Below, piece by piece: positions 5,798-58,900 of a stretch of DNA of 64,000 nucleotides. This DNA is from Planoprotostelium fungivorum (Eukaryota > Evosea > Variosea > Cavosteliida > Cavosteliaceae), in contig MDYQ01000010.1 in NCBI GenBank assembly GCA_003024175.1, positions 124,001 through 188,000 of the forward strand, written 5' to 3'. Below the pieces are notes generated by a model. The model did no database searches and was not told the origin of the DNA. It was given only the letters and a program-made list of their open reading frames with translations. How positions within the stretch are numbered: the stretch's first letter is position 1; the number at the start of each line of letters is the position of its first letter. The position numbers and the translations under genes were made by a program.

Positions 5798-7440
5798 ATG
5801 AAAGGATTCACATTTGTAATGCTGACCGGGCTGGTCGCTGCTGCCATGGCAGGTCAATCATATCAGCTCGTATGGTCAGATGAATTCAACGGAAACTCCC
5901 TCGACACCTCTAAATGGGGCTACGTGAGTCTTCTACCCCCAACAACTTCTCATTCTGACCTGTTCTAAAGCAAAACCTCTGTGATGGAGCTGGAAACAAT
6001 GAGATGGAATGTTACACCAGCCGACCCCAGAACGTCGCTGTTCAGGGAGGAAACCTAGTCCTGTCTGCTCTCATCGAAAACTACGGAGGGAAGCAGTACA
6101 CATCCGGTCGTATCAGCACATCCGGAAAGTACTCTTGGAAGTACGGACGTTTCGAAGTTCGAGCCAAGATCCCCAATGGAATCTATCTGTGGCCAGGTAA
6201 GAGGAGAGATTTTTGTGTGTCATTCTAATCGTGATGCAGCCATCTGGATGATGCCCGAGAGCAGTGTCTACGGAGGTTGGGCTGCCTCTGGAGAGATCGA
6301 CATCGTGAGTTCATCCACATCGTCCACCATCTCATCTCGTTCAGATGGAAAACCGTGGTGGACAGAACAACGAACATTCCAGCACCCTCCACTACGGTGG
6401 AAGCTGGCCCAAGAACACTTACAAGAGCAGCGGCAGCCTCTATGCCAGCGTCGACCTGACGCAAGACTTCCACGTCTATTCTGCCATCTGGACGCCTGAC
6501 GCCATCCAATTCGCTCTAGATGGTAACGTGTACTTCACCGTACCTCTCCAGCAGAGCTTCAACAACGCCGGTGCCGGCTCTTACCCCTACAGCAAGAACG
6601 GCCAGGTGAGAGACCGCATCTACAACGAGTCAAATCTGATCCGTACAGCCGTTCGACCAGAACTTCCATTTCATTCTCAATCTGGCCGTAGGAGGGGGCT
6701 TTTTCGGCGCGAATTCGCAGTCACTGACTACTGCGATGGCCAGAGGTTGGGCCAACCCCAAATTCCTCGTCGATTACGTTCGCGTCTACCAGCTCAAGGA
6801 CGACAACATCGTGGTCAATCCTTCTCCCGTGCCCACGGCTTCATCTACAACCTGCCAGACCATGTTCAACTCCCTCAAGTGCAGGACATCCACCAATGAC
6901 GTCAACCAGTTGGACTCTGGCAAGATCAGTGGAGCGAGAGCGTGGCTGTGCAACAACTATGGAAAGTACTGCAACGACATCAACAACGGAGGTTCTCTCA
7001 GCTCCTGCAATGCCGCCGAGCAGATCTCATACGCCATGAACTCGTACTACCAAGACTATTCGGCCCAACAGGTACCATCATCATCAGATCATGCGATCGG
7101 ACCATGACGATGAAGACTCACAATGTATCAGGGAGCAGGTGCCTGCGATTTCGGTGGATTGGGTAAAGTCTATACGACTCAGACACCGACGAGCCAGACC
7201 CCCACAACAAAGACACCCGCCTCTACCGTCACACCCACCACCTCATCTTGCCCCTCTGGACAGAGTCAATGCACGGACGCCACCTTTGGCAATCAGTGCT
7301 ATCCTTCCTCCGTCTACAGCTGTGTGTTGGGAGATGACAACAAGTACCATCTGTGCCCCAAGGGTACCAGTGCTTGTGGCTCAGCTTGCTATCTGGCGAG
7401 CCAGTACAATTGTGCCAGTGGATGGTTGGTTAGAAAGTGA
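5798..7440 (+). CDS. Secreted GH16 beta-glucanase with X8 and Cys-rich binding modules
   Basis: This is a secreted endo-beta-1,3(4)-glucanase or laminarinase-type enzyme. A signal peptide (MKGFTFVMLTGLVAAAMAG) leads into the GH16 fold: LVWSDEFNGNSLDTSKW, ASGEIDIMENRGG with the catalytic ExDxxE glutamates, and FHFILNLAVGGGFFG. It ends its jelly-roll at VDYVRVYQ. An X8/CBM43-like module follows (CQTMFNSLKCRTSTNDVNQL to CDFGGLGKV, six Cys), then a Thr/Pro-rich linker. The C-terminal Cys-rich domain (CPKGTSACGSACYLASQYNC) resembles the CBM52 type of yeast Eng1-like glucanases. Introns split the gene four or five times, one of them inside the active-site motif. The stop is TGA, with AATAAA about 65 bases downstream. 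It converges on the GH17 gene, which shares the X8 module. Confidence 0.9.
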
Positions 7441-7595
7441 AGTGTATAAAGTGGAATCAGTTTTCGATGTCTATTCATCTTTCGCTCACTCGTACGATAA
7501 GAAAGAATAAATCATTTATCCTCGAATATCGTACCATCTCTCGAAAATAGTCTCGAACGATAAGACAAAATCTTGCGTTTCGATTTATTCCGCAT

Positions 7596-10500
7596 TCAAA
7601 AGAATAAGACGGCTGAGAGAGTGAAGAAGGATAAAGTCGCGACTATAGATGCCCCTCCAACGATGGCGTTCGTATTGTCTCCTTGCGTCTCTGTCGTCCC
7701 CCTCGAGTCCACCGATGACCTCGTCGGCTCAATCAAAACTCGTCCTACTCCTCCAAATGAACAGGCGGCACCTCCTTGGGTGTCGTAATACCTCAGATAG
7801 TATTCGTTCATGGTGAACGAAGCTCTCTGCAGGGTGTTGCACGTGGTGTAAGGTCCGGTGGCGTTTAGAGGTCCGCACAGATCAGGGTTGCTCTCACAAA
7901 TGTATTGAATGGCCAGGCCCACCACCGTTGCGTTCATGCCCGAAGGGTCTTCCACGGTGGTGCGGCAGCTCAAACTGTTGAACATCGCGTGGCAGACGTT
8001 ATCTTCAGAGACCAAGTTCCATTGGATCGTTCCGATGCCGTTGAAGTAGCAGGCTGCATCGCCCGCAGTAGAATAGAAGTCACGGTAGTACTGGTTCATG
8101 ACGTACGTGGCCTTCTGTATTGTCGAGCACTGAGCGTAGAGACCTCCCGCGCCGTACAATTCGTAGCAGTAGGAGGGAAAATTGGAGCAGAGGTAATCCA
8201 AGATGCCCCCCACGGCGTCGGCATCGAGGGCGTTGATTCCCGACGATTTTGTTCTGCACTGAGCGTCGTCGTATACCTCTTGACACATCGTGGCATTGTA
8301 CGAGATGTTTCGGTGGATGTTACCAAGGCCGTCGAAGCTGCAGGTACCATCACCGCGTGACTTTGAAAAACGGTCGTAGTAGAAAGACATGGCATAAGAG
8401 ACCTTCTGGGCCGCATTGCAGGCGGCGTACTTTCCGTAGATCCCGCTCAGTTCTCCACAAGCTGATACACCATACTGTCCACAGACGTAAGCCAGGGCGG
8501 AACCGATGAGTGTGGCGTTCAGTGTTGAAACATCTTGTGATGCAGTGCGGCAGGCGAGTGACTCGAACATATCCGAGCAGAGCGAAGCGTTCAGTGGTGT
8601 TGCCCTCCGGATGTTCCCCAGGCCATCGAAATCGCAGGCTGCGTCCCCCAGCGTTGGAAAATTGGTGGTGTAGTACAAGTCCATGACGTAAGAGGCCTGC
8701 TGGGTGAGGGAACATTGAGAGAAAGAGCCGTTGTAACCACGCAGAGAGAGGCAGAGTGATGGAGAATCTTGACAGATGTAGGAGATCGCGGCACCCACGG
8801 CGGCTCCATCGACCAGACTGACGTTCTCTGAGGCCGTTCTACAACGAGACAGAGAATAAGCCTGGTGGCAGATGGTCTCGTTGACGGGTGGCAGATTGAG
8901 ACGTCCCAATCCATTGAAATCGCAGGCGACCTTTCCTTGCGTGAAAACGTGATCGTTGTAGTACTTGTTCATGACAAATGTGGCCTTCTGTGTGGCATTG
9001 CAGCGGAAATAAATGGAGCTCGAGTCGTTGAGAGGTATGCAGTACTGAGGGTATTGACTGCACAAATAGTCCAAGGTGCCTTGTACGGACGTCTCCAGCC
9101 CGGTCGGACTTTCCGAGTACGTACGACACTGTGCGGAGGCGTACATCTTGTGACAAGCTTCTGGCGTCGAAGTTGAATAGATCTGTCCGATCCCCCCAAA
9201 GTAGCACGCGTCGTCTCCTTGCGTGTGAAGGAATTGCTCGTAGTATTGATCCATGACATAGGAAGCCTTCTCGATTGGATTGCAGTGCGCATATTTAGCT
9301 CCCACTCCCCGTATGTCTGAGCAGTAGTGAGGAAAGTGGGTGCAGAGGTAGCTGGTGGCTTGTCCTGCTAAGGTGGCATTGACAGCAGACACATCGTTGG
9401 ACACCGTGCGGCAAGTCAAACCGTTGAACATAGACGTACAGTCCGTCTTTGCGTACGTACCCACGGGAGCGGAAGTGTACGTACTCTGAATGTATGTGGA
9501 TGGAGCATCTGTGGGAGAGTGAGAAGAAATTGGAGGACGTGAAGCTCACTCTTGCACTTGAAATTGGACGATGTTTTGATCGTGCGATTGTTGTGGAAGA
9601 GACCATACTGTCTTTCGTTGGGCCAGTACTGCCACGGCTGCTCGAACGCATCGAACCAAAACATCGGCATGTTCTCTGTAAAAGCTCTGCAGGCCATATT
9701 TTGGAGGTACCACGTGAGAGAACCGTAAGAGTTCTGGACATCACGATCAGATCGACACCACTCCATCATGATGCGATCACCTGTCCGTTTCTGACATCAT
9801 AGGTAGACCAGCCTGTTTCTCCCATCCAGATGGTCGTCGTGTTGGGTTGAGCTTTCTTGATCTGGTTCCAGATGCTGATGACGTAATCGGGGCCGGAGTT
9901 GTCGTTGGGACCATTGAAGGTGATCCACGATTCGTATACGGGGAAGGTCTATACTGATGTGAGTCGATACGGATGATGAGAGGCAATCGGCTTCAATCAT
10001 CTCCTGTGGAGGGCTCACATTAGACAGAAGAATGTCACAGACAGTTCCTAGAATGGGGTTGTTCAAGAGGACGTAGTGGGTGTCTGCATAGCCGACGGGA
10101 AAGGTGAAGCCGTAATCTCGAGTCCAATTCTACACGTCCATCAATAAAGAGGTGTGCGATGGCTTTTAGTGCGATCTATAAATGAGCTCACTTTGACGAG
10201 TGAAACGCGCTCGAGAACGGTCGTGACGTCTAAGTCTCTTCGATAGAGAGATTCCGTGCCAACTGTGGCTCCGATGATCGTATCGTGGACTTGGTAATTA
10301 TCCTCCAACCACTGTAGGATATACAGTTGGTAATACACCATGTCTATGGGGTCGTTTTGGAATCCAATGACGACCTTGAGATGAATCAGATCTCCATTCT
10401 GTTATTATCGCGTCACGCACCTTCATGCCAAGCTGCTGTGCGATCCTGACTGTATAGTTTCCTTGGTCACAATCGTGCGTGTTGTAGATCCGAACACGGT

Positions 10501-10660
10501 TGGTGAATGGCTTTAAGAGAGTCATATCCTCATAAACTTCATCATACGACGGACAGCTGGTGAGATTTCTTCGTGCTGTGTAGTCGATTCCATAGATCTC
10601 TGCATCAACTAGAAACAGAGACAAAGAAAGCAATACCAGTGAGAAGATGTGGCTCCTCAT
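7596..10660 (-). CDS. GPI-anchored GH17 glucan 1,3-beta-glucosidase with six X8 repeats
   Basis: Read from 10660, a signal peptide (MRSHIFSLVLLSLSLFLVDA) is followed by a GH17 barrel: IYGIDYTARRNLTSCPSYDE, NRVRIYNTHDCDQGNYTVR, IIGATVGTESLYRRD with the acid/base Glu, and TTTIWMGETGWST with the nucleophile Glu. Then FWFDAFEQPWQYWPNERQYG closes the domain. From 9464 to about 7730 one long exon carries six X8/CBM43-like modules, each opening with a pattern such as CTSMFNGLTCRT and closing with ACxFxGxG. The tail (NAIVGGASIVATLSFFTLSA, then VLFF and TGA) looks like a GPI-attachment signal. In plants X8 modules bind beta-1,3-glucan. The protein probably sits on the cell surface and handles fungal, algal or self cyst-wall glucan. 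Confidence 0.9.
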
Positions 10661-11236: not shown

Positions 11237-13370
11237 TTACAGTTTCGACTTGGCTTGGGGTTTGAAGAAGGCCTCAGATACCTTTGCCCTCTGAATTTTA
11301 CCGGTGGCCGTCTTAGGCATCTTGTCTGTGAGGTAGATTCTCCTTGGAACTTTAAATGCCGCCAATTTCTGTCCGACCCAACTGCATGACGTCACCATCA
11401 CGAACATCACGCTTCATCTTCTCACGTTCTCAACTCTTCTTCGGTGACGGACTTGTCTGCCTTCAGAACGACGGCGGCTTGGATGTCTTGTCCATATTTC
11501 TCGTCCGGCACCGCGAAAGCTACGGCCTCAGCGATGGCAGGATGGTCTAAGAGGATGTGGTCCACTTCTGCAGGTGCAATCTTCTCTCCTCCACGATTAA
11601 CCAACTCCTGTCTTATGTCACAAATAAAAATGATTCAATGAAAGATTAAAATAGAATAAAATGGGAGACAACAGAGAGAAATAGAATGGATGGATGTGAG
11701 GACCTTGATACGGCCAGTGAGAGTTAGATAGCCTTCTGAATCGAGGACACCCTCGTCACCCGTGCGGAAAAATCCGTCCGAGTGAAAAGACGAGGCGTTC
11801 GCCTTCGGGTTGTTGAGATAGCCCCTCGTGACGTTGCTTCCACGGATGCACACCTCCATCTCATGAGACGATGACTCATCCTCCATCTGGTCTCACCTCT
11901 CCCTTCTGCACCACGTCACCCTTGTCGTTACGGATGGATATCTGCACGATGTGACTCGTTGTAGATGGATGAATATTTCACCTCGACGCCCTGTCCTAGT
12001 CCAACGGTTCCAGGTTTGTGTGCTGCCGGTGGAAGAGGGTTCGATGAGACCTGATGAGCTGCCTCCGTCATGGCGTAAGCCTCTAAGACGGGTGCCTGAG
12101 GGTACGTAAGATGAAATCTCGTCGAAATTTCATCACCTTGAACGCCGCCTCTAATGCGGAGAGGGTGGCAGGCGCGAGGGAAGAAGAACAGGACCGGATG
12201 AATCTCAATTTTCCGGTAGAGGAGGGAGACCTCTTCAAGTGAATACAGTGTCACGTTTAGAATGTCACCTGCTGTCGGGCGATGCCAAGAGAATCTGATG
12301 GATGGTGGGGACGGCTGTGTACCACGTGCACTCGTTATCTACGAAATTTCTCCAGAAATTCTGCGGGGTGAAACTGAACTGAGTCAATCTGCAACTCGTC
12401 GAGACGTCTCACCGGGGAGGTACGACAACGGCGCCACCGGATAAGAAGGTGGCGAGCAGACCAGCGACTAGACCGTGGACGTGAAAGAGAGGCATGACTA
12501 GATAAGTTCTATCTCTCGTCTTCAATTGGTACGTGTTGATGACGTTGTTCATCGTCCTCGATAGATTGCCATGAGACAGAGGGACCGCTGATGATGTGTC
12601 ATGAAGGTGATGAGGATGAGCGTCATGATGTCACCCTTGGGTAGGCCGGTGGTGCCTGAAGTGTGGAGTAAGAGGGCGATGTCATCGGGTTGGGGTGTCT
12701 CGTTGTAGATCAACCTCTTGGCGGGAAATTTTCCCTCGAAGAGGACGTGCAGCTTTCCTCCCTCGTAAGAGACTTCAGCTGCAGCCACGCCGACCTGAAA
12801 CATTTTTATCATTTTATTTATCATCTACAACAAGCCCACCTCCTTGGCTGCCTTCAGCACGGTGGAATCCTTCTTGGAGAATTCTCCCTTGGGTACGAGG
12901 ACTAACTTTGACTGAGAATCTTTCAGGTAGAAGACAAACTCTTGTTGCGCCAAGGCGGGGTTAAGAGGGCATGATATTCCACGGAAATTGGAGACACCTG
13001 TGGAGGATGTGAGATCTCACATCAGAGATATGTCATGGATGATGTTTCACCGAAGAAGGAGATGATGAATTCAACAGTGTTTCCTAAGACGATGGAGACA
13101 GCTGATCCTTTTGTGAGCCCAGCTCCTGCTAGCACTTCTCTGAACTCTATACATCATCAGTCGTTTGATTCACATCACGCTGAATGCGGGCCAATGAGAG
13201 GTAAACCTTTTGGCCGTTGAATTTTCACCTTCGATTATGTTTCCAAGATGATAGTAATCGAGAGAAGGTCCACCCCCTGGGACGATGATAGCAGGATGAG
13301 CACTGAAGGTGATGTTCTTTGCGAACGGACTAGCTAGAGTGTTGAGAGGGAAAGGCACGAGAGCTGGCAT
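11237..13370 (-). CDS. Peroxisomal acyl-CoA (oxalate-CoA-like) synthetase
   Basis: This is an AMP-forming CoA ligase of the ANL superfamily, nearest in layout to yeast Pcs60 and plant AAE3. Exons from [18 protein letters not shown] give [20 protein letters not shown] and then the ATP-binding loop [20 protein letters not shown]. Next come [39 protein letters not shown], the hinge region [38 protein letters not shown] and the catalytic-lysine loop [19 protein letters not shown]. The last residues are SKL, a classical PTS1, so import into peroxisomes is expected. It activates a carboxylate, possibly oxalate or a fatty acid. About ten short introns interrupt it, some carrying the recurring GTTGTAGAT motif. 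Confidence 0.88.
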
Positions 13371-13480: not shown

Positions 13481-15564
13481 ATGCCCAAGAAGGACTTGTT
13501 ATCGGAGTTGGGTGAGTCCAGAGAGTGTTGGTGGTGGGAATTGATGAGGTCATGTGTAGCTGATTGCCCTGGATTTAATCGCGGTGCTGTGACTGATTTG
13601 GGAGGAAAGAGACGTGCAGCTCAGAAACAAAGTGGGTTGACCTTATTCATCGAGCGATTTTTCATCAAATAATCACCTCTCATTTCTGATGTTGAAACAG
13701 AAACAACCTACAGAGATTTATACCCCGAAGATGGATCCAGCTCCGATTTTTCCGGCGAAGAAGCTTCATCCAAGACTGCCAAAGGTAATGATCATCACAA
13801 TCATCTCTTTTGTGATGACATCACAGCCAAACGAAAGAAACATGACAGCGACGACGATGTCAGTCCTTTCAAAGTGATTCCAAAGAATAAGAAGTACATG
13901 ATCCGTCTACGATGATCACACGCTGATACACGTCAGGCGAAGTGGAGAGAACAAAAAGCAGGCGATCACTCTCTCATCTGATTCAGATGACTTTCAGACA
14001 CCCGTGAAGAAACCAAAGCGGCCGAAGAATGAGGACATGGGTGAGCGTTGTTTTACGCAATTCATTTCAACTATCGCACGATTTATCGTGTGAAAAGAGA
14101 AAAAGAGTCATACAAGTGATTCATTTCACACACATCAATAGAGAATGAATTTACCGAAAGAATGGGAAACTGCGTGATCTGAAAGAAGAAATACTGATGA
14201 AACGACAGAAGTGGACATCATGCACAGCACACCACCATCAGGTCGTTCCCTGTAACGTTCAAAGTCCACTGACACATCACCAGTCAAATTAGAAGTGAAA
14301 AAGAACGATCCCATCCCATCAGTCCGATCACCATCATCAGCCACAGACAACCTCATCCACAAACCTCCTTCGGTGAGTCTATTCATTCACGATCATGTCC
14401 TGTGATCATTCACGTTATACATTACCGTCTCTACAACGAGCCAACTTTGTTTCTCAGCGGCGGAAATCGATTCGCATCGAAGATTCAGAATCAGAGAAAG
14501 AGGATCAACCCGCCAAACTGAACCCTTTTCCCGCCAAAATCGAAAGCCCGCCAAAATCGGAAAACGAGGTGCGTTGTAGATGGATGATCTCCCTCACCAA
14601 TGGAGGGATCACAGATCTACGATGAGATTGAAGATGCGAGAGGATCAGATCTGGATGAATCTTCAGAGTCTTCCGTGTACGATGAAGTGAATCTGGATCA
14701 ATCGATCGTGAGTCAAAGTACAAGTGTCGGAGCTGATGAAAAGACAGTCTGATGAGGAAGAGAAGACGGAGAGGTGAATGGTTTGTCATGTGGATATGAT
14801 GATGATGATGAACAGTGGAGCGATGATGAGAGAAGAGGAGGAGAGAGAAGAAGAGAAGAAGAGGCAACAGCAAGAAGACAAGACAAGACAACAAGAAGAA
14901 AAGAAGAAACAACAAGAAGAGAAAAAGAGACAACAAGAAGAAAAGAAGAAGCAAGAGGAAAAGAGAAAGCAAGAAGAGAAGAAACAAGAAGAGCAGAAGA
15001 GACAAGAAGAGAAGAAGAAGCAGGAAGAGCAGAAGAGACAAGAAGAGAAGAAGAAACAAGAGAAGACGGAGAGAGTGACTGTGAAGAGCACACCACCCAG
15101 CAAGACACAGACCAAAGTGGAAGAGAAGAAGATTGTGAAAGAGCCACCGAAGGCAAAGACGAAAGAAGATGAAGATGCAGATGATGAACATCCAGAGGAG
15201 AACGGACACAACAACGACGATGATGAGACGCCTCCACCCGAGGAGAAAGACACGTCGAAGATCACCAGTCCAGGTGATCTCATCTTCTCCTCCATCTTCT
15301 GATGTCTTCCATCAGTTCGACGGGGCAACTTTGTCTATCCAAAACAAGTCTCAGCTTCTCCTCTCAGAAAGGGTCTGGGAACATTTAAACCACCAGCACA
15401 GATACCAACCATCGCCAAACAAGTAGAGGCGGAGAGGAAGAGTGAGTATAGGGGATGACGTCATCGCGCTGATGTAATCAGGTGTGACGACGGGGGCGAC
15501 GGCGGCACCACCGGTCAAATTGAGGATGGGATTGAGTCGAAGAGCTCTCGTGAATAAAAAGTGA
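13481..15564 (+). CDS. RAD51AP1-like protein with C-terminal RAD51-interaction motif
   Basis: This is probably a homologous-recombination accessory factor. Exons give MPKKDLLSEL, then DLYPEDGSSSDFSGEEASSK, KRKKHDSDDDVSPFKVIPK and LSSDSDDFQTPVKKPKRPK. These are short acidic-then-basic blocks like those of RAD51AP1. A long Glu/Lys/Gln/Arg-rich helix at about 14820-15070 follows, then a linker. The end, PVKLRMGLSRRALVNKK, closely matches the RAD51-binding end of RAD51AP1 (LRxGLSRLARVKPLHP type). The gene is disordered apart from the coiled region. I rest the call mainly on the C-terminal motif and on the similar domain order. The exact start and several N-terminal junctions are uncertain. Confidence 0.6.
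14815..15075 (+). repeat. Purine-rich KEQ-coding low-complexity tract
   Basis: Imperfect AAG/GAA/CAA repeats encode tandem EEKKKQ-type units, probably one long charged helix. Long open frames on the opposite strand here are Leu/Phe/Ser-rich mirror artefacts. Confidence 0.85.
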
Positions 15565-21136: not shown

Positions 21137-21524
21137 TTATTGTTGAGCTCCTCCAGTAGGTGCTTTGTCCGAATTGACAGCTGCGGGTTCAGCGTGAATA
21201 ACTTTTGAGGGATCTTCCTCTTCCATGTTATTCAGATCGAAACCTGATACGCATATCAGTCGACGTCGCTCGTTTAGAAACATGATCTCAGGCAGATTGA
21301 ATGTAAAATCACGCACCTGCGTCGTCCCAGTCTTGGTTATCCTCTTCTTCCTCCTCCTTCACGTTAAACGTTGGAATGTTTCCATTATCGAGGTGCATCG
21401 ATATCTCCTCTCTCACGGTCGTACTGAGGTCGATGTATCCACTCGAAGCAGAACAGTTGGGCTGGGTGGCGTCTCCGATGACAGTGCGATGTAGCGTGTC
21501 GGGCTGAGTCTGTATTGATAGCAT
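21137..21524 (-). CDS. Small acidic protein, unknown
   Basis: Two exons join at DWDDAG/FDLNN across a 73-nt intron (GTGCGTGA to GTATCAG) to give about 104 residues. They start MLSIQTQPDTLHRTVIGD, continue YIDLSTTVREEISMHLDNG and IPTFNVKEEEEEDNQ, and end SDKAPTGGAQQ with TAA. It is strongly acidic and probably disordered apart from one helix. I do not recognise it. Confidence 0.5.
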
Positions 21525-21607
21525 GGCTTAGAACTCATGTCGTTTCGCTACTGCTCGCGATATGACCCGAAACACGTGACCAGGATTAGACCAGTTTAAT
21601 GTGCTAT

Positions 21608-21631
21608 TCTGATCTGATCTGATCTGATCTC
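21608..21631. repeat. CTGAT microsatellite
   Basis: About five tandem copies of a 5-bp TCTGA unit lie in the divergent spacer before the large ankyrin gene. Confidence 0.85.
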
Positions 21632-21892
21632 AGGCTATGTTATCGAACATCAACCAGACCTACGGACGATCCCTTTCCGGCTGATCTGATCAGCCATCAT
21701 CAAAATCCCCGTTCAAAAATGTTTTAATTAACGACAGCACATGAATGATGGTTCAGTCCGCGGACATTGTCACAAATTTTCGAAAATTATGGATTTGTGA
21801 TCGTGACGTGGTTAATCAATTGTAGATTACGGAGTCAATTCCTGGAACGTGGAGGGATGATTACACCAAAAGAAGATCACTCCACGACCAAC

Positions 21893-24800
21893 ATGGCAGC
21901 GAGAACCCCACCCAAATTCGTCAGCAAGGACTACATCCACACCTATGAACAGGTCAAAGGAAACTTTGAAGAGAAGTTTCGTCTCTTCGATCAACTTCGC
22001 GAGGAGGAAAACTGGTGATTTAGACACACATTGAGGGATCACTGACCTCTCAAGGTATCGTGAAGTCTTTGCCCAACAGAGAGACTCAGAGGTGCTCAAC
22101 GATCCTCACCTGTGTCTTGTCCCAGCTCACGATGTACCCTCCGACTTCTTCAAGATAGTGGAACAATCTGAACAAGAGAAGAACCTACCTCGCATCTTTG
22201 GAGAAGAATGGGCCGAGACCAGAAGACAATCGAAGGCCAGCAATGCAATTGTGAACGAAGACGATGAAGTAGAAGAGGACCAAGAGACCCCCGAGAAGGC
22301 AGAGATCCCTGCCGCCGTCCGCACTGACACGGCTTCATCCATCGTGTCTGAGTCAGAATTTCACAAACAATTCGACATCTTTACCGAAGGTAGACATCGA
22401 CCTACATCTCTTCCATCTTCTAAACGAAATACAGGACAATTTCGTTACTTCAATTGGGACAATGTGTTTGCCGCTGGTGGTTCCATCCTCGCCGCTCTCA
22501 TGCCCGTTCCAGAGGAACACGCTGCGAAGAACAGCACCCGAAGGAACTATTTCCACAAGCTCATGTATTCCAACTCGGACATCGACCTCTTCATCTACGG
22601 ATTGAATGAAGAAGATGCCAACAAGAAGTTGGTAGAGGTGTATGAGTCCATCAAGGTGAGAAGAAGAAATTCCATGTCTCCTTCGCTCATCTTGAACACA
22701 GGACAACCTCCCGGTGGAAGCCATCTGCTTCAGAAGTAAATACGCTGTGACCATTGTGTCCAGATATCCCTTCCGTCACATCCAAATCGTCCTCCGTCTC
22801 TACAAGTCCCCCGCCGAGATCCTCATGGTGATCCATCATCCACTCGACATCATCGTCCACCACTCTCCACCTCTCTCTGATCTCTATCAAAGGGCTTTGA
22901 TGTCGACGTCTGTTCGGTCGGTTTCGATGGAAAGAAGGTCTGGATGACGCCCAGAGCTCATCGTGCCCTGACTCATCGTTACAATACGGTAGACATGGAG
23001 AGACGTTCACCCTCTTATGAGACTCGTCTGACCAAATACGCCGAGAGAGGTAAAGACAGATGTCTCGTTGTAGATCGATGGAACTGAAGACGAAAGGTTT
23101 CTCGGTCGTCGTTCCGTCTCTGGACCGTACCCGGATCGATCCTCAGGTGCCTCTTATATTTCATTTTATTCTTCGAAATTTGGGACTGATAGAGGATAGA
23201 TCTTTGAGAGGAGATTCGATCAACTGCAGGGACTGCCCAGGCTGTTGCTCATGGAAGCCATGCCGGATGTCAACGATCGCATCTCTTACAAGAAGATGAT
23301 GAGAAAGCTCAAACTACAACCTGCCATCGATGACTCCCGCCGTGAGCTCTCGTGATGAAATGATGTCACTGATGATGACGATGCAGCGACGGTTTGGAAC
23401 CGTCTGACGGGTCAAGAAGAAGACATCGAGACAGAAGACGAAGAAGAAGAAGAAGAGGAAGAAGAAGAAGACTACGACGACGAGTATTACTACGCCAGGT
23501 GACCCTCCATCTACAACGAGCCACATCCTCACGAAAGACCAGAAAGAAAGCCTCGGAATCGGATTATTCCAGCGTCTTTCTTCCTTGGGGAGATGATTTC
23601 ACTGCAGAGAAGATCAGAAAGTTGATGTATACCAAGGACATGGTACTCAATTCGGAGTGGTACGATCCATCGAAGAAGTATCACACTCACCCTTGCTTCT
23701 TTGGAACTGCATCGGAAGTCTTGAGAGACTGCTGTGGACACTGTCCTCCGGTACCAGCCGAGATCAACATGGCAGAAGAGCCGTACGTACAAGGCGTACT
23801 CACTTGGGTGACCGTAAATCCCGGTGAAATTTCGAAGTCCTCAACTTGGACTGTACGCTGACTCTTCAAAGGAGCGCAAGGAAAAATCGGATCTTTCCAC
23901 CCGATCACAGAAGGAGATTGGACCGAGGTGACCATCTACAACGTTGTAGATGGACCTTCCCTGACCTTCCCAGGGAGCTTACATCATCGATCTCAACATC
24001 CAACTCCTCCAAGCCGTCAATCTGAACGACGTAGGAAGGGTCAAAGATCTACTGCAACAAGGTGTCGACGTCGACGGTAGAGATCCATACGGTAGAACAT
24101 CTCTCATGTTAGCCTGCATGGGTGGATGTGTCGAATCGGCTGAGGTCTTGATTCAGAGGGGAGCCAGGATATCGAGCCACACACCCGATGGAAGGACTGG
24201 CCTCATGTTAGCTGTGGGTGAGAATGATGTGGTGGTGAGGGAGGTGGAGTGATGGTGAATAGAGAACGGCAATGCAAAGGTGGTGGAACTACTGTTGAAG
24301 AGAAAGGATGAGATCGACGTGGAGTGGAAGGAGAGACATTCAGGAGAGGATTCTGGTGGGGAGAGTAGATGTGATGACACAATTCTCATCTTATCATAGA
24401 ACCATCCAAATCCGAGGAGGAAGGAGAAGAAGGAGAGGGAGAAGAAGAAGAGGGAGAAGAAGAAGGATCAGAGGTGAGAAAGACATATGAAAATCTTTAA
24501 AATGAAATAAAACAGGCATCCAGCCAAGATGAAGACTTTAAGAAGATTCGAAAGAGCCTTCCAAAGGCAGGAGGCGTCATCAGCGAAGAATTCAAAGACG
24601 ATCTCAACCTCAACGCTGGCAGTTGGGACCGCCCCACCATCACCCCATTAGACATCGCACTACAATACGACTACGTCGACATCTGTCGACTACTCATCGC
24701 TCGGCCAGGTAACGTCCATCTACAACGCTCACTCACCCTCCACAGAAGTGAGAGAGAGTAAGAGGTGGCTGTCGAGCGCCACGAAGAAGACATTTTCCTT

Positions 24801-27800
24801 CCTTTTAGATTCTCTCACTGCAAACGATGTCAACCAAGTCGAAGAATTCCAATGGTTCCGACTGTCCACCGCAGACGAATTGAGAGATATTGAAAGCTGG
24901 TACGACCGACGGGGACTGCAGGGAAGATGGACTGTCTTTCCATCTCAGGATCAGCAGTCCTATCCTAGACCGATGGATCCCATCGCACGTTGCATGCAGC
25001 AGGGTGGGAAGATGGGGAGATTTCGCGTGGATCTCACGCGTACAGGTCTGCCCGAATTGAAGGAGGAGCAGCTGGAGTTGATCGAGATGATTCTTAGAAA
25101 AGTCCACGGTGATGATAAAATTTGGAAGAGAGAACCAAGGAGGATCAAAGAATGTCTTCGTCAGGACCTGAAGGTGAACGGAAGAGACGTAAGATGATCT
25201 GACTCGTTGTAGATGGCCGTAGAAAAGGGTTACTTGAAGGTAGTAGAGCTATTCTTAGGTTACGATCTGTTGGGCAGTGTGAAGGATACAGAGCTGAAGT
25301 CATCTCAATCGAAAGAAAGAGACGGTGAAGAGAAAGAAGAGGAGACATCTCTGTACGCTCAGAATCTGTTGACGCTGGCCACTCAAAAATTCACAAACAC
25401 ATCAGCATGGGTTCGTATTTATCATCTGACGTACACCTGAAGACATCGTTCAGTTGAAACAAGCTCAAGAGAATTTGAAGACTGCACAGAAGGACAAGGA
25501 GAAGTTAGAAAGAGAGAGGGAGATTTGCGGCCGAGACCCTTCCACGGTACAAGATCATCTCATTTTTAAACCCTAAACCTCACAGATCCCCGTTGTACAC
25601 GTTGAAGACAAGAGACACGAAGATCCCGATTACAGAGCCCTCCATAGAGTTCTCAACACCATCCAACCTTCTACCTTCTGGTACGACGAGTTGAAATTTC
25701 ACATCGAGTCCAAATTTCCCCTGCCCAGAGAGGAGAGCGAAGAAGAGCTCATCAGAAGAAATCGTCAAGGCAACCAGAATTGGGACTACTACATGAATTA
25801 TGCCGACCAACGTATCACACAAGCCATGCAGTGAGGGTATCTCTATTGTATGGAGAGATTGAATGGTGAGCAGGGTTGTAGATGGACACGAAAAGAAATC
25901 GAGAAATTATCACCACATCGCGAAGCTTATCGAAGAGAAGATGCCACTCAGAGACGTCCAATTCAAGGTGATTCAGATATTCGATATTTTTATCCATCTA
26001 CAACTGTGTAGACAGACGTAACCTTTCTTGCAGGCGAGACGAGCGGACACTTGGGAAGAATTACGTGGTGATTATCTTCCCTTGTTCGAGTCCATCTACA
26101 ACAAGGACGTTGAAAAATTCCTCCAAATCACTTCGGGTGACTCGCCCCTCCTGGCGGGCGTTACGTAAGTAGAATTTTCGATGAAAACTGACGTGAAACA
26201 GGAGCGTCCTGACAAACAGATCTGCCTTCGAGTTTGCCTTGGAGACAAAAGACCCACAAATGATCGGAACCTTCTTAAGAGTAGTACAATTACAATCTCT
26301 ATCAAAGGAGAAGGTGGAGGAAGTTCAGAAGAAGCAACTACCCTTCAACAATTTCGATCTGTTGAACCAAAAGGTGAGAGGACAATAACGAGAAAAGTCC
26401 AATAATCATTCACTTAAACGTGTCCATTAACAACGGTGTAGATCAGAGTGGGAGATTTTGTTGATAAGAAGGGAAGGGCCAGATCTTCCGAATCGAAGAG
26501 AGTGGAAGGTCCAAAAGCGAGAGACATCCTTTCTCGTGGGTTCTACGTCCCAAATCCGTTCTATATATAGATCGAATCACGAAAACTCATGTTTGACATC
26601 AGGTGTAAACAATTGGGACGTGACGCATCGATCGGTGGAGACATTGAAGGCAGTTCTAGAAGCTTTCCCGGAGGATCCCAAATGGGTGACACCATTCTAC
26701 AACCTGCCATCACGTAATCTGATAGTATGTAGGTGACTGCAGTCATCAACGCCACAGGCATCTACAAATGCAGCATGGAAGACAAAAATATCATGGATGT
26801 CATATATCTATTTTTAGATGCACAGAGGACGGCACCGAAGCCAGTCAAGCAGCAGCTGTACGAGGGGCTGGTGAGTCATATCCCATCGATGATTTGATGA
26901 CATCATCAGGACATCAGCGGAAAAAAATCAGAGTGGGCAGGAGAACATCACATGCAGGGAAGAGCCATGTGTGAGACGATCATGATCATGATGATCATGA
27001 TGATGATCTGATGAGGTTGCAGGCAGTGTCGATCTATTCAAACGGTCCACTTCTCGCGTAGATATCCTTCTACAACTCCACGAATATTCCAAGAGATATC
27101 CCGGATGTTTCCAAGAGACAGATCCTTCGTTGATCACAGACATGACAGATGCCACACTCTACTCTTCTTTAGAGGATAAGGAAGGATCATTCAACCAGAC
27201 ACTATTCGACACACTCGTCCGCATCGATTCAGACATCGACCACGATGGAAGAGGTACGTGTGATCAAATCGACGATGTCATCTCTGATGGATGCCATCGA
27301 ATCGACGATGTGATTCTGATATATGACATCAGGTTACCTCTATCACGATGCGGTGGTTCCAGCCATTCGTTCGGGTCATTTCAAGACACTTGCTGCTCTC
27401 ATTCAACGTGGCGCGAAATTATCCGGCGTAATCCATGATGTCATCGCTGCGGGCAAGATCGAGCAGGTGAATCGATCTGTCTACAACATTGTAGATTGAT
27501 TCCATCAGATCCTACCCCTACTGTCCGACGAAGAAGTGACGCGACTGAACGAGAACCGTGACACGGCGTTGCACACGGCCGTACGTTACGCTCCACGCTA
27601 CAAGACAGAAGATACGAGTAAGTGATATCACGTGACATCAGCCATTCACACGTGATGCAGAGAATTACGAAGAAGTCGTGAAAAAGTTTATGAGAGATCC
27701 AAGAATAGATCTGCAGCATAGAAACATCCAGGGCTATACGGCCATGGAGATAGCAGTACGAGAGGAGAGACATTGGATCGCTCAGATTCTAATGGAGAAG

Positions 27801-27839
27801 ACCTCGGAAGAGCAGTTGAAGAGAGGTGATGATGATGAC

Positions 27840-27871
<32 letters not shown>

Positions 27872-42300: not shown

Positions 42301-44989
42301 TCATCTCACCTGAACATTGTACAGACCCTTCGCATCCGGTAGGGGCCCGGTCAATTGATTGTAAGACTGTGAACATCCGTCAGCTAGTTATCCGATTTAT
42401 ATGAAGAGGCTCACCATATCGATGGTGATAACACTGTACATGGTATCATAAGCGTCCTTTGGGATATATTCGAAAGAATTATTCGCCGCATAGATCTCCA
42501 ACAGGTACGGAGAATAGCCTGGCGCCGCACCTGTGCCAAGGTCAAAATGACGACACCATCGCACGATATCACCCGTAAACCCATTGTACGCGATTTTTAA
42601 GGTCTGTAGTGTGGGTATGGCCGAGAGGGCCTGAGGTAGCTCCCCCGTGAATCGATTCGAGGTGAAGATGAGCGCGTTGATCAGGAGCAGATTGGCAATT
42701 TCATCCGTCAGACTACCCGATAGACCGTTGTAAGAGACATCGAGAACTTGCAAGAGGGGTAAACTCATGAGACATTGGATGTCTCCTTGTAGAAAGTTCG
42801 ATCCCAAATTGAGATAAGATATCTGTGTCAGTTGAGAGAAAGTGTTGGGGATAGATCCATTAATGTAGTTGTAACTCATGTCTAGATCTGACCATCGGTG
42901 AATCTTCACGTGGATTTCGATGATACATCACATGTGAGGCTGGCGACGCTACCGAGGCAAGGTGGAATGACAGACTCTACGTTGTTTACGGAGATGTCGA
43001 GGTGGTCAAATTGCGGATAGTTGCAGAGGAACGTGGGGATTTCACCGGAGAATAAGTTATGACTGAGATCGGCGTATTGGATACTAGTAGATAACTCGGG
43101 AATACCTCCGGTAAAGAAATTGTTTGTCCGTGGAGACGTCAGAATTTTCGAGGAATTTGAATCGACTCACCAAGTCAATAAACTACGTAGGGTCAATACA
43201 ATCGATAACGTGTGTTGATATCACCTGCAGTCCGGATAATTTGGAGAAATTCGATGAAATTTCTCCGGAGAAGGAGTTCGAACCTATGATGACCTGCCTC
43301 AACTGCGGACCTATGTCGAAAAGATCTTCCGGAAGTGTTCCGGTCAACTGATTGGTTTTACAACCAATGTGCTGTAATGAACGACCCCACAGCAGTGGCA
43401 GACTACCTGACAAAAGATTTCCAGAGAGATCGAGATGTTGGAGCTGATAGATCGTCAAGAGAAGTGGTGACGCCATATCACGTCACCACATCCGATTGTA
43501 CCAGGGAGGATAATATCGGACCTTGAAAGTTGTTGTAGGATAGACTGATGTACACGAGAGACGTGAGATTTCCCAGAAAATCCGGGAGAGTACCTGTGAG
43601 AGATCATCACTTCTCTTGACATCATATGGCATCGAGATACTGAAGACAGTACCTTTCATGAGGTTGTGACCCAGATCCAAATGTTGAATGAGAGATGAAT
43701 TCTGAAGGGGAAGGAGTGATCCAGTGAGAGAGCAGCGGAAGGCATCCAGGGTGAGTAAATTGCTATGATGGTTCATATACCACTCGCCACATGTTGTTCC
43801 ACCTGTTCGATGATAGACTGTCGAGAGAGCCTTTGACGTATGTCTCTGAGACGTTTAGATACGTTAACCCCGGCACACCAGAGAAATTGGGTAGATATCC
43901 GCTCAACCGATTTAACGACACGTCGAGTGATCTACCGTCAGATCAGACGAAACGATCGGAATTTGTCATGATCCGTCGTCACTCACACGAGAGAGGTTAA
44001 CTGCTGCAGACCGTCCATAGAGCCAGTCAGACCGCAGTTGGATACGTGAAGTGTCTGCAGGTTGCCGTAGTGAGTGAAAGTTGACAAGGGAACGCGCAGT
44101 CGATTCCAATCCAGGTGGAGAGACGTCAGACTCTCGTTGTAGATGGGTCCCAGGTTATAGATGGCATTGTAAGACAATTTGAGGACTCTAAAGATGGTGT
44201 GAAAAGCATGCGTTGGGAAGATCGTCGGCCTCACCGAAGATGAAGAAGGGTGGATAGATCGATGACGGATCCGGACAGTTGGTTCTGTGAGAGGTCGATG
44301 GTCTGGATATTGGAGAGTCTACAGTCGTTAGACGATGAAACGAAAAGGACTAGCCTTTACCTTAGGATTTGAGAAGAAACGCTGCCACCGATTGCATTAG
44401 AAGTCAGTATCAGTGACTGTATGGAAGATGGAAGGAGCGTCAGTAACCCATCCAAAGACCCATTCAGCTCGTTACCACCTCAGAAATTTCAAAAGACGAT
44501 CACGTGCTCCTGTTTCACCAGCATCAAGTAATGTGAGGTTGTAGTTTTGAGTGAGGTTGGGTATGGCTCTATAAAATTGGTTGTAAGACACGTTCAGATG
44601 TGAAAGACTCGACAGTGCGGACAGACCATCCGATAGTCTCCCTCCCAGATGATTGAGAGAGACATCCAAGGAGGTCAGATTAGCGAAGGAGGAGGTCCAA
44701 GATCCATCGAGCGTTCCACTCAAGTTGTTGTTGGTCAGAGAGAGTGAAGAGATGTAGGAATCTCGACATGCGACTCCAAAGTATCTGCATGAGTCAGTGC
44801 CTCGATCAATCCATCCGGTGTTGTTCTTCCACATCGGACCTAGTGAAAGAGGTCATCACGTATTCCTTCCTGCTTCATCTCACCCCCTGCGAGGTGAAAT
44901 AGGTTTTGGAGGGCATCGAGGACAGCTGCGTCCGTGCCCAACTGACTGAGAACGTAAAGAGGATAGAGAAGAAGGAGTGTGGCCCTCAT
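39304..44989 (-). CDS. LRR receptor kinase (plant-like ectodomain, TKL kinase)
   Basis: This is a cell-surface receptor. From 44989 a signal peptide ([20 protein letters not shown]) leads to an LRR cap ([40 protein letters not shown]) and then about 25 or more LRR units of the LxxLDLSxNxLxG type across many exons. Examples are [19 protein letters not shown] and [18 protein letters not shown]. After a juxtamembrane domain comes one membrane helix ([20 protein letters not shown]) followed by basic HRRRM. The kinase has the glycine loop [20 protein letters not shown] with VKQ lysine, the catalytic loop HRDLAVRN, SDFGMSR and LKWMSPE. HRDLAxRN is typical of tyrosine-kinase and TKL enzymes, so it looks active. 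The tail is short and Asp/Ser-rich, ending NKKE. The ligand is unknown. Confidence 0.9.
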
Positions 44990-55842: not shown

Positions 55843-55922
55843 TCACATGAACAGTATTCGATGTTATGAATTTATTAGACGGTTCGTCGTGGGTGTAGTG
55901 ATGTGGTGCATTGCTGAGACGT

Positions 55923-58900
55923 TTACTTGGTTTCGTTGGCCGTCGTCTGCGTAGTCTGCTGTTGTTCGTTCATGTTCACTATTGCCTGTTGTACCATCGC
56001 TTCTCTGTCCTTGCTGGTCAACCTTCCTCTTCCCGCTCCCTGCTGAAATCCCTTTCCTCCGTCTGCTGGTGTGGGTTGTCTGCTTCTGTTCAGAACATAC
56101 GTCCAACTGTCATAGAGATACACACCTCAGCAAGAAAACGTCGGGAGAACCGGAACCGGGAGGTCTCTGCACTCTGGCTCTGCTCTTGGGAGTGAAAGCC
56201 TCACTGCTGCTCCTGAGGCCACCGCTGGATCGGAGCCCCGTGGTCTGGGGAGAATGGACGGGGAGGCCGTTGAGGGAGGTACCGAGACCGGGAGAATTCC
56301 TCGCGTTGAGTTGGATGCCTGGGCTGCTGAAGGAGATGCCCTGACCAGACTTACGGATGCCCTGAGCCGACAGAGTCTTCGTTCTGGGGTTGACTACGGT
56401 GTGGAATTCCACTTGGTCTCCGGGGTTGAGAGAGACACCGCCTCCCACCTCACTCTGGTGGAAGAAGATCTCCTCTTGAGATGCCGCCAACTTGATGAAT
56501 CCAAAGTTCTCCTTGGTTGCAGCCACGACACCCATCTCAGTGTGGGGGACAATGTTTGTGGCTCTCAGGTTCTTTGTTCTGGGGTCTTCAACGATGTTGA
56601 AAGAGACACGGTCACCCTTTCGGAGGGTGTATCTCTGATCAACATCTTCTCCGTTGAAATCAATGAGATCGGGTGCCTCCTCGGTACCTTCCGTTTTGTA
56701 CGAGATCTTTCCTCCGTATCCTTCCCTTCCCCTTCCTCTCAGCTCTCTGTCCACTGTTCCCGTGTGCTTTCCTTCGAGGACCTTCACCTGACACCGTCAG
56801 ATCTTCCTCCTCTCTCTCCTCTCACCGGAAACTTTACGGAGCCCTTGGACAATGGCTTGATGCGGATGGCGAGGAGCTTCTTGAACCATGAATTCTTCAC
56901 GACGGAGAACTCGAGCTCCATGCCGGGTGTGATGGCGTCTGGGTTAGCCACCTCAGAGAAGTGGAAGTAAACCTCCTCGTCTCGATCGGTACACTTGATG
57001 AAACCGAAAGAGTTCTTCACGGAGGAAACAACTCCGACTTCACGGGGGAGTTGGGTGGGGGTCACCAGCTCGACGTTCACGGCCGATCGGGTCTTGGTTC
57101 TCTTGTCTGTCGCCACGTTGAATCCAACGATATCTCCGGGCCACAAGGCCAGCTGAAGAATCGCATCAGAACACTATCACAAAGAGAGAGAGAGAAAAGT
57201 ACAACAATGAGAGAGATAGGAGAAACGTATGACAAAGAGAGATGAGAGAGAAGAGAATTTTCACCTTGGTGTCCTTCACATCATTGCAACCAAAGGTGAC
57301 GGTCTCGTTCTTCTTTCCACTGGGGGTGTTGATCTCGTACTCGATCATTCCGAGATCGGAAGGTTGTCTCTTTCCAGTGTAACCAGTCTGTCCGGGCTTG
57401 CACTCTCGGATGACAATTCCCTGCAGTCTAGAGTCGCTGACGTCCTCAAACTTTACAGTTCCCGCGTTGAGCAGGTGGATGTGTGCCGCCTTCTTCTTTC
57501 CGGTCCTCGAATCGGGCACGATGATGAACTGTACCTCCATTCCAGGGTGGATGTCCTTCTCTCCCGTGGTCAGAGATTCCAACAAGTTGTTGTCCTGCCC
57601 TCATCAATTTCTCTCCCCTCTCTCCTTCTCACCTCGAAATCGGTAAAGTGGAAGAACAAGTCTTCGTCTTGTTCGGCACACGTGATGTGACCGTAGTTCT
57701 TCTTGACGGAGCAGACGACACCCATCTCTACCTTCTCAGTCACTGCAGTGACAAGGGTGATGTCACTGGCGTGCTTCCTTCCGTTCCTCTTGTCAATGAG
57801 AACGGTGCACTCTATCTCGTCTCCGTATCGGAGGAAAGGGAAGACTCTGCCCATGTTGGTGTGGTTTCGAATGTCCTGGAGACCAAAGAGGAGGGAATCC
57901 GTACCCTCGGGGGTGTTGAATGTGATGACACCCTTGTCTTCGTCCTCTCTTCGTGTGAAGGGAGAGGCACCGAGTGGGGTGGGGAAATTGGGTGACAACT
58001 CCCTCTGTACGGTTCCACGGACTCTCTCTTCGTGCTGAACGGTGAAGGAGACGGTTCCCTTGGGAAGTCCTCTCACACGTACGGCGCAAAGTTTTCCGGC
58101 CCTCTCATCGTTGGCGACGGTGTACTCGACTTCTACACCCTTGCTGATCTCCTGGCCCCTCTGGAGCAGGACGACGTCTCTAAAGTGGAAGTAGAGGGAT
58201 CGGGGGGAGTCGCAGCATCGGATGAAACCGAAACCGTCCTGCATCTCTCGTCAACGTACGATCTCACATGTGACTCGTTGTAGACGAACGAGAGTAGAGG
58301 GAAAGGGAATAGATAGAGTACATACCTTGACGGAATGGATGACACCGGTCTGTCTGTCACCACCGAATCGCATGAGGACGACGTGAGCGGCACACTTTCC
58401 CTTCAATCTCCTGTTGTAGACGATATCAAACTCCACTTCATCCTCGGGGGCGAGGGGGACTCTGGGCTCGTCGAGATCCATGGGACCAAAGCGTAACTGC
58501 TCCACCGTGTCTTCCGTGGTACGGTACGCCACGACACCGAAATCGTTCTCGTCACTGTGCTCTGAGATTTCTCTGAGGATGATACCCCTGACCTTCTCTT
58601 GGATCGTCTCAGTGAAGACGACAGAGCCCTTGGGCAGGAGGGACAAGTTGACTGCAGAGAGTTTGTTCGTGCGTGTGTCGTTGACGACGTGGAAGGAGAC
58701 CTCGTTGCCCACACGGATGGAAGTGATGAAGGCGTGGAGTTCCTCTGAGTTGAGGGGCTGGGGGGGAATGAGGGAGGTGCAGTGGAAGAAGATATCTTCC
58801 TCTCGATCGACGCAGCGGACGAAACCGTAGTTGTCTTTGAGGAGGCAGATGACACCGAGTTCTAATGGGACAGTGGCATCGACGGGAACGGGGATGGGGT

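What the first reader, a model, noticed from the sequence alone, without database searches (positions are those of the whole stretch)
6619..58284. A short motif, CTCGTTGTAGATGG, recurs in about twenty introns of unrelated genes
GTTGTAGAT or ATCTACAAC occurs in introns near 6619, 11958, 12823, 14430, 14573, 23067, 23509, 23932, 24718, 25206, 25875, 25996, 27480, 32138, 32689, 34720, 35214 and 58277. Both orientations occur, often flanked by CTC/GAG and GG/CC. A 9-mer should appear far less often in a few kb of intron. Possible explanations are a splicing enhancer, footprints of tiny intron-forming (introner-like) insertions, or a nuclear protein site tolerated mainly in introns.
Basis: partly seen in the sequence, partly recalled or inferred. 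Interest (0 to 1): 0.85.

Follow-up and report, generated by a model that had tools for sequence, protein, structure and literature searches.

The report
Repeated DNA word inside gene bodies
In the genome of an unnamed single-celled eukaryote, a DNA word of about 20 letters recurs in the inner part of most of the long genes examined, in both orientations, in tiny introns and also in coding stretches through the choice of synonymous codons, while it is rare near gene ends and between genes; this suggests a signal read on the DNA itself, perhaps by chromatin, and not a splicing signal or the mark of new introns.

Summary
GTTGTAGAT occurs 26 times in the window (0.46 expected); the 14-mer occurs 683 times in the 36.9-Mb genome, the reversed word twice. 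In 264 kb with self-trained gene models (90 genes, 904 introns, median 43 nt) the site, M1, is about 20 bp (yTGRCwCGTTGTAGATGGA).

It is not an intron signal as such. (1) Orientations are equal inside introns (39:38; 45:38 genome-wide), against an RNA signal. (2) Of 17 motif introns with a position-matched paralogue intron, 15 have a partner without the motif, against introner footprints. (3) It marks gene interiors: 103 of 458 interior introns, 7 of 254 near starts, 2 of 105 near ends. (4) Interior exons hold 53 sites against 8.2 after synonymous shuffling.

A second interior word, GAAATTTCGnnGAAATTTC, behaves alike and resembles a published nucleosome pattern. Best reading: DNA-level gene-interior elements that may organise chromatin beyond the reach of arrays anchored at gene ends. 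The DNA-level location is well supported; the function is inferred, and spacing tests did not support it.

The parts
6613..6634 (-). M1 site in a 43-nt intron (6606-6648) of the GH16/X8 gene 5798-7440
   Evidence: PWM 19.9; GH16 and X8 exons
6838..6859 (-). M1 site in a coding exon of the same gene
   Evidence: PWM 23.7
8832..8853 (-). M1 site in a coding exon of the X8-repeat gene 7596-10525
   Evidence: PWM 19.1; six X8 stretches
11950..11971 (+). M1 site in a 40-nt intron (11942-11981) of the AMP-binding gene 11237-13370
   Evidence: PWM 26.7; Pfam
12694..12715 (+). M1 site in a coding exon of the AMP-binding gene
   Evidence: PWM 22.4
12818..12839 (-). M1 site in a 45-nt intron
   Evidence: PWM 14.2
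14565..14586 (+). M1 site outside the predicted genes
   Evidence: PWM 19.9
23059..23080 (+). M1 site in a 47-nt intron of gene 21376-28100 (ankyrin repeats in one exon)
   Evidence: PWM 21.7; Ank
23504..23525 (-). M1 site in a 44-nt intron
   Evidence: PWM 28.0
23935..23956 (+). M1 full dyad CCATCTACAACGTTGTAGATGG (23932-23953) in a 46-nt intron
   Evidence: PWM 29.3; dyad at 8 places genome-wide
24713..24734 (-). M1 site in a 37-nt intron
   Evidence: PWM 21.1
25198..25219 (+). M1 site that overlaps branch region and 3' splice site of a 39-nt intron
   Evidence: PWM 26.3; 3'ss class
25867..25888 (+). M1 site in a predicted exon
   Evidence: PWM 22.7
25991..26012 (-). M1 site in a 66-nt intron
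   Evidence: PWM 22.1
26089..26110 (-). M1 site in a coding exon
   Evidence: PWM 18.5
27474..27495 (-). M1 site in a 42-nt intron
   Evidence: PWM 18.3
32130..32151 (+). M1 site in a 38-nt intron of gene 30555-33923
   Evidence: PWM 20.3
32681..32702 (+). M1 site in a 121-nt intron
   Evidence: PWM 19.6
35209..35230 (-). M1 site at the 3' splice site of a 48-nt intron of gene 34204-38434
   Evidence: PWM 23.6
36866..36887 (+). M1 site in a 62-nt intron
   Evidence: PWM 22.4
37212..37233 (-). M1 site in a coding exon
   Evidence: PWM 22.7
44128..44149 (+). M1 site in a coding exon near the start of the LRR gene 40701-44834
   Evidence: PWM 15.5; LRR
58269..58290 (+). M1 site in an 87-nt intron of the CSDE1/UNR-like gene 55923-59628
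   Evidence: PWM 25.4; cold-shock domains
12112..12133 (-). M2 element (GAAATTTCGnnGAAATTTC) in a 41-nt intron
   Evidence: PWM 28.3
32706..32727 (-). M2 element in the 121-nt intron that also holds M1
   Evidence: PWM 21.2
34509..34530 (+). M2 element in a coding exon
   Evidence: PWM 22.3
35235..35256 (+). M2 element in the 48-nt intron that also holds M1
   Evidence: PWM 24.2
37128..37149 (+). M2 element in an 80-nt intron
   Evidence: PWM 18.4
33753..33774 (-). M2 element in a 43-nt intron
   Evidence: PWM 17.6

Best explanation
The motif (M1) is a DNA-level, gene-interior element: a partly dyad-like recognition site of about 20 bp for a sequence-specific nuclear DNA-binding protein, present at nearly two per kilobase in the inner part of genes, in either orientation, wherever the sequence is free to hold it (short introns, synonymous positions in exons, even on top of a branch point and 3' splice site). 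With a second word, M2 (GAAATTTCGnnGAAATTTC, two copies one helical turn apart), it forms a gene-body code. Proposed mechanism (inferred): near the start and stop codon nucleosomes are ordered by anchored arrays. Beyond about four nucleosomes from the start and two to three from the stop that order fades, and the interior is organised by sequence: M2 favours a rotational setting of the nucleosome and M1 holds a barrier protein, which keeps the interior packed and blocks cryptic initiation. Shown here: enrichment, strand symmetry of M1 inside introns, interior concentration, excess in exons through synonymous codons, turnover inside old introns. Inferred: the binding protein, the nucleosomal role, the benefit.
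For: M1 is strand-symmetric in intron cores (39:38) and genome-wide downstream of AG|GTGAGT (45:38, dyads counting in both; reversed controls 1 and 0). Sense, antisense and 3'-splice-site copies share most of the same flanks (46, 49, 27 copies). Interior profile in 72 genes: of introns more than 600 nt from the stop, 1 of 86 within 300 nt of the ATG carry it, 2 of 98 at 300-600, 4 of 54 at 600-800, 9 of 51 at 800-1000, then 16-33% per bin; of introns more than 1000 nt from the ATG, 0 of 24 in the last 150 nt, 3 of 83 at 150-450, 5 of 35 at 450-600, then 20-29%. Convergent gene ends, with no promoter near, are also poor in it: 0 of 23, 2 of 33 and 2 of 21 in the last three 200-nt bins. Interior exons: 53 sites against a mean of 8.2 (max 15) in 100 synonymous shuffles, 14 sense against 0.8 and 39 antisense against 7.5; 41 against 4.6 at score 12; 33 of 44 (score 12) lie outside any conceivable hidden in-frame intron. 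M2: interior exons 53 against 10.3 (max 19 in 40 shuffles), intron hits 84 interior, 9 start, 3 end, reversed control 5 hits in all; GAAATTTCGNNGRAATTTC matches 92 times genome-wide, control 0. The published CG-type nucleosome pattern is CGGAAATTTCCG (one passage of PMC3117857). A/T-triplet autocorrelation at lag 10-11 peaks at 1.76 in interiors, 1.28 near starts, 1.28 outside genes, 1.44 near ends. [quoted passage not shown] that this organism is like Dictyostelium is not shown.
Against: No chromatin, ChIP or expression data exist here. M1-M1 distances show no nucleosome-like period (154 pairs, p = 0.44). M1-M2 order is borderline (p 0.04-0.08 at three cut-offs) and A/T periodicity around M1 is not significant (p 0.05 upstream, 0.87 downstream). 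The M2 period fades after two to three turns, so M2 could be an ordinary factor site. M2's equal orientation (49:48) says little, because its half is a palindrome and one element is often hit on both strands (190 hits, 154 sites after collapsing). The exon excess is not confined to interiors: near starts 9 sites against 2.2, near ends 5 against 1.9, so density, not mere presence, marks the interior. One of 8 hold-out genic sites lies 413 nt from a predicted start. Four of 27 genes with 8 or more interior introns lack M1 in those introns (1.6 expected). Matrix, gene models and tests rest on the same 264 kb; the models are self-trained and have no transcript support.
Confidence: 0.4

Rival explanations
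1. Licensing code: M1 and M2 mark the gene as self and protect its body from silencing by small RNA or heterochromatin, as intronic PATCs do in C. elegans. The sites are read on DNA by a chromatin protein; dose in the body matters, exact position does not.
For: Same facts as the main reading: intron and gene-body location, strand symmetry, many interchangeable copies. 33 of 40 genes of 2 kb or more carry it in an intron (12 of 17, 12 of 13, 9 of 10 by length class). PATC-rich introns protect transgenes from germline silencing (abstract and introduction of PMC7725773).
Against: No test of silencing possible. Early introns should serve as well, yet they rarely have the motif. The share of interior introns with the motif does not follow gene length, GC3 or coding score (43 genes).
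Confidence: 0.15
2. Ordinary transcription-factor sites: intragenic enhancers or silencers for a widespread regulator; sites near promoters are selected against because they disturb initiation.
For: Dyad-like form (23 of 95 internal copies have TACAAC on the left); other words that look like known factor sites are also intron-rich (TGACGTCA, TCACGTGA).
Against: 33 of 40 genes of 2 kb or more carry it and interior introns carry it almost at random among genes (clustering p = 0.08), unlike a regulon. Depletion at convergent 3' ends is not explained by promoter avoidance.
Confidence: 0.17
3. Molecular drive: the word spreads because a copying or repair process favours alleles that carry it, as uptake sequences do in Haemophilus and Neisseria (recalled); it has no local function.
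For: Both orientations, exons and introns, synonymous accommodation, independent placement in paralogues (both-carry pairs 5, expected 4.1, of 48 interior pairs).
Against: Such drive gives no reason for a sharp interior zone or for the low intergenic density (0.20/kb). Two unrelated words share the pattern.
Confidence: 0.1
4. Introner-like insertions: each motif is the trace of a mobile intron-forming element.
For: High copy number, both orientations, intron location; a full 22-bp inverted repeat exists at 8 places.
Against: No shared sequence beyond about 20 bp; motif introns not longer; of 17 motif introns with a position-matched paralogue intron 15 have a partner without the motif; exonic copies in excess of synonymous shuffles.
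Confidence: 0.03
5. RNA-level splicing signal (enhancer, silencer or snRNA pairing).
For: Lies in introns of about 43 nt; 28 of 75 sense copies in introns up to 60 nt sit exactly at the 3' splice site, typically after a TGAC-type branch point.
Against: Strand symmetry of the internal copies, exonic copies, rarity in introns near gene ends although those have much the same length, composition and splice sites.
Confidence: 0.03

Closest known systems
Periodic An/Tn Clusters (PATC) of C. elegans introns
   Same: DNA signature in introns, many copies; M2 is also a helically phased A/T element
   Different: M1 is a defined site of about 20 bp, not an A/T pattern; M2 has two phased units, not long clusters; both also occur in exons; no silencing data here
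CG-containing nucleosome positioning pattern CGGAAATTTCCG (quoted in PMC3117857)
   Same: M2 core GAAATTTC with G/C edges repeated one helical turn apart
   Different: M2 spacing is 11 bp and the signal spans about two turns; M1 has no counterpart; no nucleosome map for this organism
General regulatory factor sites of yeast (Reb1, Abf1, Rap1; recalled)
   Same: Long specific sites held to act as barriers that order nucleosomes
   Different: Those sit mainly at promoters and gene borders; M1 is rare there and fills the interior
DNA uptake sequences of Haemophilus and Neisseria (recalled)
   Same: Short word far above chance, both strands, order of 1 per kb, present in coding DNA
   Different: Eukaryote; concentrated in gene interiors; two words
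Introners / introner-like elements
   Same: Many copies in introns of unrelated genes
   Different: Introners are whole introns that share sequence; here only about 20 bp inside otherwise unrelated introns

Membership tests
Introner / introner-like element | Members are similar along the whole intron | tested here: not met
   Conservation ends at about -8 and +6 around the core
Introner / introner-like element | The intron is gained with the element (absent in homologues) | tested here: not met
   Of 17 motif introns with a position-matched paralogue intron 15 have a partner that keeps the intron and lacks the motif (108 pairs; one gene family supplies most). No other species could be compared.
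Introner / introner-like element | Target-site duplications or terminal inverted repeats at intron ends | not tested
   Where an inverted repeat exists it lies inside the intron; no TSD search was run
Intronic splicing enhancer | Acts in RNA, hence one orientation | tested here: not met
   39:38 in intron cores; 45:38 genome-wide
PATC | A/T runs with about 10-bp period over long stretches | tested here: not met
   M1 consensus has none; M2 period fades after two to three turns
PATC | Protects from germline silencing | not testable with these tools
   Needs transgenes
Sequence-coded nucleosome positioning signal | Core matches the published pattern | tested here: met
   M2 core GAAATTTC with a G/C edge against CGGAAATTTCCG in a passage of PMC3117857
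Sequence-coded nucleosome positioning signal | Periodicity of about 10-11 bp in the zone concerned | tested here: inconclusive
   Lag 10-11 autocorrelation highest in interiors, but M2 itself may cause it; none clear around M1
Sequence-coded nucleosome positioning signal | Nucleosomes are in fact positioned there | not testable with these tools
   No MNase data
Barrier-factor (GRF-like) site | Sites spaced by the nucleosome repeat | tested here: not met
   No period of 140-220 bp among 154 site pairs, p = 0.44; power is low
DNA uptake sequence type drive | Both strands, coding and non-coding, above chance | tested here: met
DNA uptake sequence type drive | Biased transmission of motif-bearing alleles | not testable with these tools
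   No population data

The most novel reading that the evidence does not exclude
This eukaryote writes a gene-interior address code into its DNA with at least two long words, M1 and M2, M1 alone at nearly two sites per kilobase. The words thin out in the first 700-800 and last 450-500 nt of genes, are held in tiny introns and in synonymous codons alike, and take over chromatin organisation where nucleosome order anchored at gene ends stops. One purpose of its many 40-nt introns would be to give the interior free letters in which to write the code.
Probability: 0.25. Interest if true: 0.93.

Novelty: categorically new. Interest (0 to 1): 0.83.

Why it matters
I know of no described eukaryotic DNA element that is concentrated in gene interiors, rare at both gene ends and between genes, indifferent to strand, and present both in introns and in synonymous codons of exons; ten searches of an open-access library (listings and a few passages) showed none, which is a limited look. 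If confirmed it would show selection on coding sequence for a chromatin or DNA signal, would offer a reason for keeping many very short introns, and would make the question of what orders chromatin in the middle of genes testable by removing known letters.

Tried and rejected
Introner footprint and splicing signal: rejected for the reasons given under rivals. Copies of a longer repeat or MITE: flanks carry almost no information beyond about 20 bp. Promoter avoidance alone: convergent gene ends are also poor in the motif. Gene-body CpG methylation as cause: CpG is not depleted in interiors (observed/expected 1.30 in interior intron cores, 1.13 near starts, 1.09 near ends). Long-range RNA pairing of sense and antisense copies: 14 of 41 genes with hits hold a single motif intron, 13 of these a lone non-dyad copy. 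Regulon-like gene choice, codon bias, gene length: no correlation in 43 genes. Nucleosome-period spacing of M1 and A/T periodicity around M1: not found. M1-M2 order: borderline, left open. Rfam on the window: no family at gathering score. Naming the organism: not achieved; the SSU rRNA was found but no tool here compares it. My first guess, the amoeba Protostelium aurantium (deposited as Planoprotostelium), is a recalled lead that no call tests. Search for the exact words: 585 papers hold at least one; the 15 listed have unrelated titles, and I did not read where the words stand. Papers: PMC9860276, PMC10639083, PMC3117857 and PMC5378177 seen as passages; PMC13075793 abstract and outline; PMC7725773 abstract, outline and introduction; all others as search listings. 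The first gene-finder run failed and was repaired.
Full report
Observation. The 9-mer GTTGTAGAT occurs 26 times in the 64-kb window against 0.46 expected. The window is contig C30:124001-188000 of an unnamed 36.86-Mb assembly of 471 contigs; the exact 14-mer CTCGTTGTAGATGG occurs 683 times in it, 348 and 335 on the two strands, against 2 for the reversed word. The 22-bp dyad CCATCTACAACGTTGTAGATGG occurs at 8 places, control 0. A eukaryotic SSU rRNA is present.

Gene models. It gave 90 genes and 904 introns with a sharp length peak at 40-50 nt, donors AG|GTGAG, acceptors YAG|, and a branch A about 10 nt upstream. Of 20 predicted exons given to Pfam 10 matched a family in the predicted strand and frame (GH16, X8, AMP-binding, ankyrin, LRR, cold-shock/CSDE1; one, CBM_15, only just) and 10 matched none; an ORF of the CSDE1-like gene also matches UNR structures. 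The models have no transcript support. Tests by zone use the 72 genes with score 25 or more (the convergent-end test uses score 15 or more).

Where the motif lies. A 22-position matrix from 95 internal intron copies finds, at score 10, 142 sites in introns (2.95/kb), 74 in exons (0.50/kb) and 14 in intergenic DNA (0.20/kb); the reversed matrix finds 4, 11 and 6. 114 of 904 introns hold a site. In gene interiors the density over introns and exons together is 184 sites in 94.8 kb, dyads counting on both strands.

Anatomy. Copies in sense, antisense and 3'-splice-site position share most of the consensus yTGRCwCGTTGTAGATGGA (46, 49 and 27 copies). 23 of 95 internal copies have TACAAC on the left and are thus dyads; others have TGGCTC, TGACTC and the like. 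In introns up to 60 nt, 28 of 75 sense copies lie exactly at the 3' splice site: the site can double as branch point and acceptor, which accounts for the surplus of sense copies (84 same, 58 opposite). Words inside intron cores are balanced (39:38).

Not RNA, not introners. Strand symmetry holds genome-wide behind AG|GTGAGT (45 sense, 38 antisense, dyads counting in both). Introns with CTACAAC in either orientation are as long as others (median 42 against 43 nt) and share nothing beyond the site. Among 108 position-matched intron pairs of paralogues, mostly from one family on C1, 17 distinct motif introns occur and 15 of them have a partner intron without the motif. Among 48 pairs in which both introns are interior, both carry it in 5, against 4.1 expected by chance. 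So sites seem to come and go inside old introns, and paralogues place them independently.

Gene interiors. Interior introns (more than 800 nt after the ATG, more than 400 nt before the stop) carry the motif in 103 of 458 cases, introns near the start in 7 of 254, near the end in 2 of 105; the window and C1 each show this (18 of 94, 1 of 54, 0 of 19; 85 of 364, 6 of 200, 2 of 86). First introns: 1 of 90. The share rises to 16-33% per bin from about 800-1000 nt after the ATG and to 20-29% from 600 nt before the stop. Convergent neighbours give the same edge at the stop, so a nearby promoter is not the cause. Interior and other introns are alike in median length (43, 44), GC (0.463, 0.461) and donor type. 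None of 12 genes under 1.3 kb carries it in an intron, 8 of 20 of 1.3-2 kb, 12 of 17 of 2-3 kb, 12 of 13 of 3-4 kb, 9 of 10 above 4 kb. Of 16 fetched loci 9 lie outside the training DNA: 7 sites in introns, 1 in an exon, 1 with no gene model; one of the 8 genic sites lies 413 nt from a predicted start, the others at least 756.

Exons. Interior exons hold 53 sites wholly inside one exon; shuffling synonymous codons within each gene gives 8.2 on average and at most 15 in 100 runs. Near starts it is 9 against 2.2, near ends 5 against 1.9, so some excess exists there too. The antisense surplus in exons (39:14) is also in the shuffles (7.5:0.8) and comes from the codons. At score 12, 33 of 44 interior exon sites lie outside any conceivable in-frame hidden intron. 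The reversed matrix gives 3 against 2.8 in interiors and 4 against 1.25 near starts. Hence the word is favoured on the DNA, and introns are only the easier place for it.

A second word. Introns without M1 still differ between interior and ends by AAATTTCG (15 against 1). The refined element M2, GAAATTTCGnnGAAATTTC, shows the same pattern: intron hits 84 interior, 9 start, 3 end; interior exons 53 against 10.3 in 40 synonymous shuffles, near starts 10 against 5.4, near ends 4 against 1.9; reversed control 5 in all. These are uncollapsed hits: 190 hits are 154 sites, and since the half is a palindrome its equal orientation (49:48) is no evidence. GAAATTTCGNNGRAATTTC matches 92 times genome-wide, 6 places counting on both strands, control 0. 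Its core agrees with the CG-type nucleosome pattern CGGAAATTTCCG quoted in PMC3117857. TGACGTCA is also intron-rich, but only mildly interior-biased.

Mechanism. [quoted passage not shown] I therefore favour chromatin organisation of the interior. Results against it: no nucleosome-like spacing among M1 sites, no clear M1-M2 phase or A/T periodicity around M1, short range of the M2 period. That M1 is a DNA-level gene-interior element I hold at about 0.85; the chromatin role at 0.4.

Noticed in passing
window introns and C1:200001-400000: TGACGTCA (CRE-like palindrome) is 1.08/kb in introns, 0.09 in exons and 0.03 in intergenic DNA; TCACGTGA is also intron-rich. Mildly interior-biased.
   Followed up: partly
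whole sample of 264 kb: Very short, dense introns: 904 in 90 predicted genes, most 30-50 nt long, donor with G at +3 in 82%.
   Followed up: partly
window:51048-51423: GGAGGATATAGAG occurs 12 times with at most one mismatch: tandem repeat in the coding part of gene 50384-52277 (Gly/Tyr/Arg-rich); it explains the top 10-mers of the window.
   Followed up: yes
window:5798-10525: A GH16 gene with an X8 domain stands tail to tail with a gene of six X8 stretches.
   Followed up: no
window:40701-44834: LRR gene with 16 interior introns and no M1 in any intron; four of 27 intron-rich genes lack M1 in their interior introns, 1.6 expected.
   Followed up: no
L038 (G000:C425, 10.9 kb): Bacterial-type SSU rRNA match (69 bits) on a short contig: mitochondrial gene or bacterial contaminant in the assembly.
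   Followed up: no
C1:200001-400000, genes at about 31, 108-120 and 162 kb of the piece: A paralogue family (about 40-64% identity) with intron positions largely kept; useful for studying motif turnover.
   Followed up: partly
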